Shown here piece by piece: positions 17,128-21,245 of a DNA stretch of 64,000 nt. The stretch comes from Solirubrobacterales bacterium (lineage in GTDB: Bacteria > Actinomycetota > Thermoleophilia > Solirubrobacterales > 70-9): positions 1 to 64,000 of the forward strand of contig JAMLGI010000007.1 in assembly GCA_023958085.1 (NCBI GenBank), in the 5' to 3' direction. The notes beneath the pieces were generated by a model. That model was not told where the DNA came from and did no database searches. It saw only the letters and a program-made list of their open reading frames with translations. Made by a program: the position numbers and the translations under genes. Numbering within the stretch: position 1 is the stretch's first letter; every line of letters begins with the position of its first letter.

Positions 17128-18213
17128 GTGACCTACCTTCACGATCGAGAGCCGGAGCTCGCCCGGAACCTGCCGAGGCTACAGCTCGGGACAACCCCGA
17201 CCCCGGTCCGGAGGTTGACCCGGATCTCGGATGGACCGGCCGAGGTCTGGGTCAAGGACGAGGGAGCCTTCGGCGACGGTGCCTGGGGCGGCAACAAGGT
17301 GAGGAAACTCGAGTGGATCCTGCCCGAGGTGGCCCGTCGGCGACGTCGCAGCATCATCACCTTCGGTGGGCTCGGCACGAACTGGGGTCTCGCCACCGCG
17401 CTGTACGGTCGTGACCAGGGAGTCCGGGTGGTCCTGATGCTGGTCGATCAACCCCGCAGCGAGCATGTCGAACGGCAGCTTGACCGCCTGCGGGCATCCG
17501 GGGCTGAACTCCACTTCACCCACACCCGTGCCCGGACCCTGGCCGCCCTTCCCGGCCTGATTGTTCGCCACTCACACCGCGTCCGGCCACCGCTGATCCT
17601 GCCTCCCGGCGGCTCCTCCCCGATCGGTCTGATCGCCTACGTCGAGGTTGCGCTCGAGATCGCGGCGCAGGTGGAGGCGGGGGAGATGCCCGAGCCGTCG
17701 ATGATCGTGGTGCCGCTCGGCAGCGGGGGCACCGCAGCCGGACTGCTGCTCGGACTCGGCTTGACTGACCTGAAGACCGGTGTCCTCGGGGTGGTGGTCA
17801 GCGACCAGCCCCGACTTGACCCTTCCGGGCTCGCCCGACGGGCCCGGGCGGCGGCCCGGCTGCTCCGGAAGCGGGGCTTCCCGGGTCCGGCGCCGGACCT
17901 CGATCCGGGCCGGGTCACCGTGCTCGGTGAGTGGCTCGGTGCCGGCTACGGGCATCCGGTCCCGGACGCCGACCGTGCGGTGGTCGAGGCGTCGGAAAGC
18001 GAGGGCCTCGTTCTCGACCCGGTCTACACCGGCAAGGCGATGGCCGCCCTCCGCACTATCAACGCGGAGGGTGGGCTCGGGTCCGAACCGGTGCTTTTTC
18101 TCGACACCAACGGACCTCGCCTGGCTGGATCAGTCCAGGGCGGGCCTGACCGTGGGATCCGGGGCTCCGGGCCGGTCGGGGCGGATCCTCAGTTGCCGGG
18201 CCAGCAGACCTGA
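17128..18213 (+). CDS. D-cysteine desulfhydrase / ACC deaminase family PLP enzyme
   Basis: Fold-type II PLP enzyme (361 aa). The lysine of GGNKVRKLEW is the expected Schiff-base residue, and VPLGSGGTAAGLLLGLGL is the phosphate-binding glycine loop. The N-terminus reads LGTTPTPVRRL, as in D-cysteine desulfhydrases and 1-aminocyclopropane-1-carboxylate deaminases. The choice between these activities cannot be made by eye. The last residues are Gly/Pro-rich and overlap the convergent lipoprotein gene by 25 bp. Confidence 0.8.
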   Translation: MTYLHDREPELARNLPRLQLGTTPTPVRRLTRISDGPAEVWVKDEGAFGDGAWGGNKVRKLEWILPEVARRRRRSIITFGGLGTNWGLATALYGRDQGVRVVLMLVDQPRSEHVERQLDRLRASGAELHFTHTRARTLAALPGLIVRHSHRVRPPLILPPGGSSPIGLIAYVEVALEIAAQVEAGEMPEPSMIVVPLGSGGTAAGLLLGLGLTDLKTGVLGVVVSDQPRLDPSGLARRARAAARLLRKRGFPGPAPDLDPGRVTVLGEWLGAGYGHPVPDADRAVVEASESEGLVLDPVYTGKAMAALRTINAEGGLGSEPVLFLDTNGPRLAGSVQGGPDRGIRGSGPVGADPQLPGQQT

Positions 18214-18659
18214 AGGCCGAACTCCCTGGCTGCCTTTGACCCGGCGTCCAGGGGTGTCCCCTGCCGCTTGACGACGCTTTCCGGATCGGCTTCCAGCTCG
18301 GAGATCGCCCGTTCCATCTTCGCGGTCAGTTCGTCCCACTCTCTGCCGGTGTCGCCGTTTCCCTTCAACAACTTGAGTTTCGCCAGCTCGTCCCGGTAGG
18401 TGGGGATCACCTTCTTCTCGACGAACCCCGGCAGATCTTCGGCTTTCGGGTTCGTCCGGAAGAAGGCGGTCGCATCCTTCTGGCGTCGCTGATCGATCTG
18501 TCGGCAGATCTGGTCGGCCTTGGCGATCAGCTCGTCCCGGTCGAGTCCGGAGCTTCCGCCACAGGCGGCCAACCCCAGGGCCAGGAGGGGTACTGCCGCC
18601 AGGGCGGCAGTCTTGCCGGCCATGCCTGCCATCCTGGATTTCCACGGAGAGGAGCTCAC
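18189..18659 (-). CDS. Putative lipoprotein, paralogue of the upstream gene
   Basis: 156-aa predicted lipoprotein with signal segment ending LALGLAAC (lipobox) and then CGGSSGLDRDELIAKADQIC. It aligns over its length with the product of 18656-19090, sharing the SGLDxDELIAxxDxIC start and the DFGxxVC-like end. The GTG at 18659 overlaps the upstream stop (GTGA), which supports this start; an internal ATG nine codons in is an alternative. Function unknown. Confidence 0.7.
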   Translation of the reverse strand: MSSSPWKSRMAGMAGKTAALAAVPLLALGLAACGGSSGLDRDELIAKADQICRQIDQRRQKDATAFFRTNPKAEDLPGFVEKKVIPTYRDELAKLKLLKGNGDTGREWDELTAKMERAISELEADPESVVKRQGTPLDAGSKAAREFGLQVCWPGN

Positions 18660-19090
18660 TCTCCCGACCCGCAGACCTTCATCCCGAAGTCCAGGGCCGC
18701 CCGGTTGGCCTCCTCCAGCGGTGAGGTTCCACCCTTGATCACGGCGGCCGGGTCGGCTGCAAACTCGTTCACGCCCTTCTCCAGCTTGGCGATCATGTCG
18801 TTCCAGGCCTGTTCAGAGTCGCCGTCGGGTTCCAGGGCCTTCAGGTCCCTGATCTCGTTCCTGTAGAGCGGCACCAGTTCGTCTTTGATGAAGGCCGTCA
18901 GTTCGGCGGTGGACGGATCCCCTTCGAAGGCCGTGGCAGCCTTCTGCTGGAGGTCCTGCTTGCCGGTCTCGCAGATCTTGTCGCCCTGGGCGATCAACTC
19001 GTCCTTGTCGAGGCCGGAGTCGCCCCCACAAGCGGTGAAGGAGATCGATACTGCGAGCAGGGCCGCGAACGCGGCGACGTTTCTCTTCAT
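18656..19090 (-). CDS. Putative lipoprotein (tandem pair, first gene)
   Basis: 144-aa predicted lipoprotein: basic start MKRN, hydrophobic segment, lipobox SFTAC, and then GLDKDELIAQGDKIC. The mature part is helical and acidic, with one Cys near each end (KIC and MKVC) that could form a disulfide. It is paralogous to the next gene and translationally coupled to it. No enzyme motif was seen. The pair looks like a local duplication. Confidence 0.7.
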   Translation of the reverse strand: MKRNVAAFAALLAVSISFTACGGDSGLDKDELIAQGDKICETGKQDLQQKAATAFEGDPSTAELTAFIKDELVPLYRNEIRDLKALEPDGDSEQAWNDMIAKLEKGVNEFAADPAAVIKGGTSPLEEANRAALDFGMKVCGSGE

Positions 19091-19550: not shown

Positions 19551-19613
19551 GCGCCGGGCCGGTCGCGGCCGGCGATCCTCCTCGTGACCGGTCCTGTCGG
19601 TAGGTTCGGGGGC

Positions 19614-21245
19614 GTGCGTTACCCGACCGAGAACTTCACCCCGGCCGAGCGTGAACTGCTCGCTCCCTACTTCACCAACCTGGACCGTCCGGTCTTCGCT
19701 CTGACCAACCTGCCGGAGACCGTGAAGGGGGCGCTCTTCGCCCGCTACTCAAGGTACGGAGGCACCCTGCGGAGGCTCTTTCTGGATGAGTTCTCGGGCG
19801 ACATCCCTTCCGGCGGAAGGCCCTTCGACGGGGCCGAAGGTGAACGGGCGGCACGGCTCTACGAGAGTGTCTTCGTCGGCTTCGGTGACGACTCGATCGC
19901 CCAGCTCGGTGGCGCCCATGTCGCCTGCGAGTGGGTTTCGAACATCCTCACCAAGCAGCTTCAGCGCGGCCGGCTGGCGGCCTATCTGGAACAGTCCACC
20001 CGCTACATCCCGTACGACGCGGAGATGCCCGGCGGGGGCTACCGGTACTACCGCGATGATGGGTTCGGCCCGGAGTTCCGGACGGCGATGGACGAGATCT
20101 TTTCGATCTACTCCGAGGCCCTGGCCAGGGTCGAGGCCTGGGCTGCCGACCGCTGGCCCCGCCAGGAGGGCGAACCCGAAGGTCCCTGGTCCCGCTCGAT
20201 CCGGGCGAAGGCCCTCGACCTGTTGCGCGGTCTCCTGCCGGCGGCGACTCTGAGCCACGTCGGGATCTTCGCTTCCGGTCAGGCCTGGGAGCAGCTTCTG
20301 TTCAGGCTGATGGCCTCGCCGCTTCCCGAGGCCCGCCAGTTCGGTGGCATGATTCTGGATCAGCTCGGCCAGGTGATCCCCAGCTTCGTCTCCCGTGTGG
20401 AACGCCCCGATCGCGGCGGCGAGTGGATCTCTCACCTCGAGCGCCGACGCGAGCAGACCGAAAGCTGGATTGAGCGGCTCGGACTGGATCACCGGGCGGT
20501 AGTGGACCGTGATCCCGGGCCCTCGGTTGAACTGGTTCGGGTCCGCGGGTCCGAGGATGACCTGCTTGCGGCCGGCCTCTTCGAGGAAGCCGCGGTTCCC
20601 GAGTCCGAGATCGCCGCCCGGATCGCCCGAATCGGCGGCCCGGAGCGGGCCGAACTGATGGCGGCTCTCGTCGGCGAGCGCCGGAACCGCCGCCACCGGC
20701 CCGGTCGTGGCTTCGAGTCGGTCAGCTACCGATTCGAGATCGTCTCCGACTACGGGGCCTTCCGCGACCTTCAGCGCCATCGCATGCTGACCTGCCAGTG
20801 GCAGACGCTGACCCCGGATCTCGGTGCGGGTGCTCCGGCAGAGGTCGTCGAGGCAGGGGTAGGGGACCAGTACCAGCGGGCACTCGAGATCTCCCGGAAC
20901 GAGTATGAGCGTCTTGTCACCTCGGGGATGCCGGAGCTCGCTCCGTACGCGCTCTGCCTCGGCTACCGGATCAGGTACGTGCTGGACCTCAACGCCCGCG
21001 AGGCGATGCAGCTGATCGAGCTCCGCTCCGGACGCGAGGGACACCCGACCTACCGGGCGGTCGCCCAGACGATGCATGAAGAGATCGCCACCGTGCATCC
21101 CTCGGTGGCGGCGGCGATGACCCATCTCGACAGTTCATCCGAACCGCGGCTGGAACGGATGCTTTCCGAGATCCGGACCCACCGCAAGCTGCTCGCCGCC
21201 GGCGAGACATCGAAGGCACCGCCCGGGTTCTCCGAACTCGGCTGA
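19614..21245 (+). CDS. Double-domain FAD-dependent thymidylate synthase (ThyX-like)
   Basis: 543-aa protein made of two ThyX-like domains. ThyX normally makes dTMP with FAD and methylene-tetrahydrofolate and is a homotetramer of about 220-300 aa with signature RHRxxSxxxxSxR. Here the N-terminal domain reads RGRLAAYLEQSTRY (19967-20006), keeping the EQSxRY half but not RHR. The C-terminal domain reads RHRMLTCQWQTL (around 20773-20815), keeping RHR but not the serine half. The remaining C-terminal helix LDLNAREAMQLIELRSG is typical ThyX. GTG 19614 is preferred; GTG 19584 is possible. Confidence 0.8.
   Translation: MRYPTENFTPAERELLAPYFTNLDRPVFALTNLPETVKGALFARYSRYGGTLRRLFLDEFSGDIPSGGRPFDGAEGERAARLYESVFVGFGDDSIAQLGGAHVACEWVSNILTKQLQRGRLAAYLEQSTRYIPYDAEMPGGGYRYYRDDGFGPEFRTAMDEIFSIYSEALARVEAWAADRWPRQEGEPEGPWSRSIRAKALDLLRGLLPAATLSHVGIFASGQAWEQLLFRLMASPLPEARQFGGMILDQLGQVIPSFVSRVERPDRGGEWISHLERRREQTESWIERLGLDHRAVVDRDPGPSVELVRVRGSEDDLLAAGLFEEAAVPESEIAARIARIGGPERAELMAALVGERRNRRHRPGRGFESVSYRFEIVSDYGAFRDLQRHRMLTCQWQTLTPDLGAGAPAEVVEAGVGDQYQRALEISRNEYERLVTSGMPELAPYALCLGYRIRYVLDLNAREAMQLIELRSGREGHPTYRAVAQTMHEEIATVHPSVAAAMTHLDSSSEPRLERMLSEIRTHRKLLAAGETSKAPPGFSELG

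What the first reader, a model, noticed from the sequence alone, without database searches (positions are those of the whole stretch)
19614..21245. Tandem ThyX with complementary half-motifs
The N-terminal domain keeps EQSTRY but has RGR for RHR; the C-terminal domain keeps RHR but has TCQWQTL for the serine half. ThyX sites form between subunits, so one composite site per fused dimer is possible. Alternatively one domain is only structural.
Basis: partly seen in the sequence, partly recalled or inferred. Interest (0 to 1): 0.65.

Follow-up and report, generated by a model that had tools for sequence, protein, structure and literature searches.

The report
Two-domain ThyX with split active site
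This bacterium's only recognisable enzyme for making the DNA building block thymidylate is two ThyX copies fused end to end, each keeping only the part of the catalytic site that ordinary ThyX takes from a different subunit, so the two copies most likely build one working site together; the same split recurs in actinobacteria, plasmids and giant-phage-size contigs.

Summary
Window 19614-21245 (+) encodes a 543-aa protein of two ThyX-fold domains. In 81 of 84 tandem homologues (actinobacteria, plasmids, viral contigs; down to about 23% identity) the C domain holds R-H-R plus the catalytic Arg, and the N domain holds the FAD-contacting Ser, S-x-R-Y and a further Arg. In 0 of 84 is either domain complete alone, and the reverse split never occurs. 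Crystal structures of ordinary ThyX place these two residue sets in different subunits of one active site. The host has no ThyA, other ThyX, thymidine kinase or DHFR detected. In 296 genomes of its phylum, 87 of 88 tandem carriers have no full ThyA and no single-domain ThyX. Best explanation: a working FAD-dependent thymidylate synthase in which each functional site is built from a C domain and an N domain, so two chains give a pseudo-tetramer with two sites instead of four. The geometry was not measured, because no coordinates or multimer prediction were available. The two-domain architecture was noted in 2009 as uncharacterised; I found no description of the split. Biochemistry may already exist for Chlamydia ThyX, which I recall as two-domain but could not check.

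The parts
19614..21245 (+). two-domain ThyX (FAD-dependent thymidylate synthase), 543 aa plus stop; start could be the GTG at 19584
   Evidence: AF2 model pLDDT 89.2, pTM 0.87
19614..20483 (+). N-terminal ThyX domain (residues 1-290)
   Evidence: modelled alone pLDDT 88.2; best PDB match M. tuberculosis ThyX 2af6, Z 13.0, 197 residues, 3.4 A
20511..21146 (+). C-terminal ThyX domain (about residues 300-511)
   Evidence: best PDB matches all ThyX, Z up to 15.6 (3fnn, 196 residues, 3.3 A); T. maritima ThyX Z 15.5, 2.2 A
19893..19895 (+). Ser94, equivalent of M. tuberculosis Ser71 (FAD contact, subunit B role)
   Evidence: 84/84 in N domains, not aligned in any C domain
19965..19973 (+). R118-G-R120: eroded N-domain copy of RHR
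   Evidence: WGR 46, RGR 13, RPR 5 of 84; RHR in none
19989..20006 (+). E126-Q-S128-T-R130-Y131: dUMP/lid half-motif
   Evidence: E, S, R 84/84, Y 83/84 in N domains
20226..20228 (+). Arg205, equivalent of M. tuberculosis Arg172 / T. maritima Arg147
   Evidence: 84/84 in N domains; lost in C
20775..20783 (+). R388-H389-R390: FAD/dUMP half-motif (subunit A role)
   Evidence: R and H 84/84, second R 82/84 (insertion in two Paenibacillus plasmid sequences)
20790..20804 (+). T393-C-Q-W-Q397: eroded C-domain copy of the S-x-R-Y motif
   Evidence: Ser 2/84; never S-x-R-Y
20991..20999 (+). N460-A-R462, equivalents of Asn188/Arg190 (FAD contact)
   Evidence: R in 71/84 C domains; N domain has Q (68) or R (15) here, so its role assignment is unclear
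21024..21026 (+). Arg471, equivalent of M. tuberculosis Arg199 / T. maritima Arg174 (dUMP activation)
   Evidence: 84/84 in C domains

Best explanation
A working FAD-dependent thymidylate synthase, made of two fused and specialised ThyX domains. The C domain plays 'subunit A': R388-H389-R390 hold FAD and orient dUMP, and R471 activates dUMP. The N domain plays 'subunit C': S128, R130 and R205 hold dUMP and Y131 forms the lid; it probably also plays 'subunit B', with S94 on the FAD phosphates. Two chains would pair into a ThyX-like pseudo-tetramer with two working sites, each between a C domain and an N domain, and two dead ones. FAD carries the methylene from CH2-tetrahydrofolate to dUMP. Shown here: sequence, fold of each domain, residue partition, being the only recognisable thymidylate synthase. 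Inferred: geometry, stoichiometry, activity, and whether the half-sites meet within one chain or between chains.
For: Both domains match Thy1 and solved ThyX folds. The partition holds in 81/84 homologues, with 0/84 complete in one domain and 0/84 reversed (per residue); it survives in viral-contig members at 23-30% identity. Published structures put the two residue sets in different subunits of one site (PMC6514825; PMC3498832). No ThyA, other ThyX, thymidine kinase or DHFR in the 95%-complete genome. 87 of 88 tandem carriers lack a full ThyA and a single-domain ThyX; tandem and single ThyX never co-occur, Fisher p = 9e-26, not corrected for relatedness. In phage Tunturi_5 the tandem gene lies beside dCMP deaminase and near dUTPase, and on a Euzebya plasmid near dCTP deaminase. 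C. trachomatis ThyX is catalytically active (PMC3498832), which helps only if it is tandem, as I recall but could not check.
Against: No coordinates were available, so the distance between the half-sites was not measured. The Arg190 equivalent does not follow a clean partition (mostly in C; Gln or Arg in N), so the subunit B role is uncertain. The Arg87 equivalent is missing from both domains (Asn110 in N; a neighbouring Lys114 is invariant in alignments A2 and A3 and might replace it). NCBI's ThyX equivalog cut-off is not reached (56.9 against 87.9 bits). No assay.
Confidence: 0.86

Rival explanations
1. One domain is catalytic and the other only a scaffold: sites form between two C domains (or two N domains) of different chains, with substituted residues doing the missing jobs.
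For: C domains keep some conserved positions of their own around the eroded motif (T393 in 68/84, W396 in 58/84), which could in principle take over.
Against: The N domain keeps S128, R130, R205 and S94 in 84/84 over very large divergence; a scaffold would not need exactly the dUMP-contact set, and the C domain lacks all of it.
Confidence: 0.05
2. Composite sites work as proposed, and the second, eroded kind of site still binds FAD, folate, NADPH or nucleotide for regulation or reduction.
For: The third position of the N-domain RHR stays Arg in 70/84 and C domains keep N460/R462, more than a dead site needs.
Against: Both halves of that site lack most ligand contacts, and in divergent members the N-domain RHR is gone entirely (DNP, SWP, TVQ).
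Confidence: 0.12
3. It is a ThyX relative with another substrate, such as the UMP/dUMP methylase PolB, and thymidylate is made otherwise.
For: PolB is the top Foldseek match of the whole model.
Against: T. maritima ThyX scores the same within error and C. glutamicum ThyX ranks first with VIA-align. No other thymidylate synthase or thymidine kinase was found, and 87/88 carriers lack a full ThyA and a single-domain ThyX.
Confidence: 0.03

Closest known systems
Canonical ThyX / flavin-dependent thymidylate synthase (T. maritima TM0449, M. tuberculosis ThyX; Pfam PF02511)
   Same: Fold of each domain, nearly the full set of active-site residues when both domains are added together, genetic role as sole thymidylate synthase.
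   Different: Canonical ThyX is a single-domain homotetramer with four identical sites, each chain carrying R-H-R and S-x-R-Y. Here two diverged domains are fused and each holds only one set.
Domain-duplicated ThyX of Chloroflexi (noted in PMC3224940, 2009, as uncharacterised)
   Same: ThyX with an internal domain duplication, present as the only thymidylate synthase.
   Different: That paper gives no sequence detail; whether the Chloroflexi proteins show the same split was not tested here.
Chlamydia trachomatis ThyX (Griffin 2005; assayed in PMC3498832)
   Same: From memory about 529 aa and therefore probably two-domain; its enzyme activity is published.
   Different: Length and motif layout could not be checked with the tools; if it is of this type, the activity of the architecture is already established.
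PolB UMP/dUMP methylase of Streptomyces cacaoi (4p5b)
   Same: ThyX fold, top Foldseek match.
   Different: Single domain, nucleoside-antibiotic pathway (own knowledge).

Membership tests
Pfam PF02511 Thy1 (ThyX superfamily) | profile match over curated cut-off | tested here: met
   113.1 bits against 24.8, two stretches; 62 and 49.7 bits separately
Pfam PF02511 Thy1 (ThyX superfamily) | ThyX fold in each domain | tested here: met
   C domain Z 15.6, N domain Z 13.0, against unrelated rows at about 4
Canonical single-domain ThyX (NCBIfam TIGR02170 equivalog) | profile score over equivalog cut-off | tested here: not met
   56.9 bits against 87.9
Canonical single-domain ThyX (NCBIfam TIGR02170 equivalog) | R-H-R and S-x-R-Y motif in one and the same domain | tested here: not met
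   0 of 84 tandem sequences have a complete set in one domain; 14 of 14 single-domain sequences do
Canonical single-domain ThyX (NCBIfam TIGR02170 equivalog) | all active-site residues present somewhere in the protein | tested here: met
   R95, H96, R97, R199, S71, S105, R107, Y108 and R172 equivalents present between the two domains in 81/84; exception: Arg87 equivalent is Asn
Canonical single-domain ThyX (NCBIfam TIGR02170 equivalog) | FAD binding, NADPH oxidation, dTMP formation | not testable with these tools
   needs purified protein
Canonical single-domain ThyX (NCBIfam TIGR02170 equivalog) | tetramer with sites between subunits | not testable with these tools
   no multimer prediction and no model coordinates
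Domain-duplicated ThyX (PMC3224940) | two ThyX domains in one chain, acting as sole thymidylate synthase | tested here: met
Domain-duplicated ThyX (PMC3224940) | common ancestry with the Chloroflexi proteins | not tested
   no Chloroflexi sequence was fetched

The most novel reading that the evidence does not exclude
An ancient duplication and fusion turned a four-site homotetrameric ThyX into an obligate two-site pseudo-tetramer by reciprocal loss of half-sites, in a lineage now spread through actinobacteria, plasmids and giant-phage-size contigs. This would be a natural experiment in which every thymidylate is made at hetero-domain interfaces and one mutation per chain can address each half-site separately.
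Probability: 0.6. Interest if true: 0.5.

Novelty: new variant of a known kind. Interest (0 to 1): 0.42.

Why it matters
It shows how a homo-oligomeric enzyme with shared sites can become a fused pair with divided labour, and it was kept in lineages where it is the only recognisable source of thymidylate. For ThyX enzymology it offers half-sites that can be mutated one at a time, a defined FAD count per chain, and a direct test of whether the sites of the tetramer act independently. It also warns annotation and inhibitor work that motif checks on one domain will call these proteins inactive.

Tried and rejected
Griffin 2005 on Chlamydia ThyX is not held, and papers citing it give no length or motif layout, so the Chlamydia comparison stays a recollection. 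Literature searches for tandem, fused or duplicated ThyX gave only the 2009 remark. Model coordinates are not placed in the Python box, so the half-site distance could not be measured; a linked-dimer fold was not attempted because changed sequences are not accepted. No solved structure of a two-domain ThyX turned up: the sequence search found only 258-residue chains, and the fold searches listed only single-domain ThyX chains, which does not exclude one. Considered and rejected: a pseudogene or frameshift artefact (open frame, 73-81% identical intact relatives); two adjacent genes misread as one (single frame, one continuous protein in nearly all relatives). The domain tree gives N, C and single-domain ThyX as three separate groups (support 0.89-0.99): it fits one old split before the spread of the family, but the deep branches are long and I draw nothing finer from it.

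Full report
Observation. Window 19614-21245 (+) is one open frame of 543 codons plus stop (553 if the GTG at 19584 is used). It carries two Pfam Thy1 domains, both above the cut-off.

Fold. An AlphaFold2 model of the whole chain has pLDDT 89.2 and pTM 0.87. Its C domain matches solved ThyX structures at Z up to 15.6. The N domain, modelled alone (pLDDT 88.2), matches M. tuberculosis ThyX at Z 13.0 over 197 residues. Unrelated chains in the same lists score about 4.

Family. Plasmid records of Euzebya, Miltoncostaea, Parabacteroides and Paenibacillus carry it, annotated 'FAD-dependent thymidylate synthase'. It also occurs in viral contigs, many over 100 kb, and in jumbo phage Tunturi_5. Nearest named relatives of the window protein are Solirubrobacterales and unclassified Actinomycetota MAGs.

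Residue partition. I aligned both domains of 84 tandem proteins with 14 single-domain ThyX proteins and a stretch of M. tuberculosis ThyX taken from the PDB search output, so that published numbering applies. C domains keep Arg95 and His96 in 84/84, Arg97 in 82/84 and Arg199 in 84/84. N domains keep Ser71, Ser105, Arg107 and Arg172 in 84/84 and Tyr108 in 83/84. Each domain has lost the other set: N domains read WGR, RGR, RPR, DNP, SWP and so on instead of RHR; C domains have Ser at position 105 in 2/84 and never S-x-R-Y. All listed residues are in the expected domain in 81/84; no domain is complete alone; no reversed case exists. Single-domain ThyX keeps everything in one chain (14/14). Exceptions to tidiness: Arg190 (FAD, subunit B) is mostly kept in C domains but is Gln or Arg in N domains; Arg87 is Asn110 in the N domain, with an invariant Lys114 nearby.

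Why this means a composite site. In M. tuberculosis and H. pylori ThyX, RHR and Arg199 come from subunit A, while Ser105, Arg107, Arg87 and the lid Tyr108 come from subunit C, and Ser71/Arg190 from subunit B (PMC6514825). In PBCV-1 ThyX, Gln75 and Arg182 come from monomer A and Ser88 from monomer B (PMC3498832). The C domain therefore has the subunit-A set and the N domain the subunit-C set, plus the subunit-B serine. By the symmetry of the ThyX tetramer (inference), two fused chains would give two complete sites and two empty ones. Whether the halves meet within one chain or between chains is open.

Function. The genome (95% complete) has no ThyA, no other ThyX, no thymidine kinase and no classical DHFR. 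Lack of DHFR is common in ThyX-dependent bacteria (PMC1971073). Across the 296 genomes, 87 of 88 tandem carriers have neither a full ThyA nor a single-domain ThyX; the exception, G199, has a ThyA in two pieces, and two more (G129, G230) have partial or weak ThyA-like hits. Tandem and single-domain ThyX never co-occur (Fisher p = 9e-26; species are not independent, so the p-value overstates the evidence). Neighbours in phage Tunturi_5 (dCMP deaminase, dUTPase) and on the Euzebya plasmid (dcd) fit dTMP synthesis. In the window itself the neighbours, a glyoxalase-like gene and a GH114 gene, say nothing.

Comparison with the known. It belongs to the ThyX superfamily by profile and fold, fails the equivalog cut-off of canonical ThyX and fails its one-domain motif. 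A 2009 paper remarks that Chloroflexi ThyX has a domain duplication that 'has not been characterized' (PMC3224940). I found no text describing the split of the site, but the library is limited to open-licence papers. From memory, Chlamydia ThyX is about 529 aa and so probably of this type, and its activity is published; if so, activity of the architecture is already known and what remains new is the site-level explanation. Hence 'new variant of a known kind' with moderate interest.

Noticed in passing
genomes G015, G044, G079, G020, G035, G004, G071 and others (families f11, f21, f24, f27): Only a weak ThyA-type match (about 33-44 bits, mostly profile positions 110-230) in ORFs of roughly 190-330 aa. 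Several of these genomes (e.g. G015, G020, G035, G044) also have no ThyX match, so a divergent ThyA may be their thymidylate synthase.
   Followed up: no
genomes G009, G051, G075 (family f16) and G039, G162 (family f31): A single weak Thy1 match (E about 1e-9 to 1e-11) where relatives in the same families have the tandem form; possibly a further diverged or partly lost version.
   Followed up: no
L194 3007-4563 (phage Tunturi_5) and L148-L193 (viral contigs): Jumbo-phage and viral-contig tandem ThyX proteins keep the same half-site split, many at only 23-30% identity; in Tunturi_5 the gene lies next to dCMP deaminase and near dUTPase.
   Followed up: partly
window 18189-19090 (-): Two adjacent, clearly similar small predicted secreted/lipoprotein genes (144 and 156 aa) with no Pfam match; look like a local duplication.
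   Followed up: no
L195 2983-4602 (Parabacteroides distasonis plasmid record NZ_OY725790): Tandem ThyX 40% identical to the actinobacterial one in a Bacteroidota plasmid record; suggests transfer between phyla.
   Followed up: no
genome G040 (C5:3420-5018 and C71:17630-19198): Two full-length tandem ThyX genes in one genome (reported contamination 5%), either paralogues or a mixed assembly.
   Followed up: no
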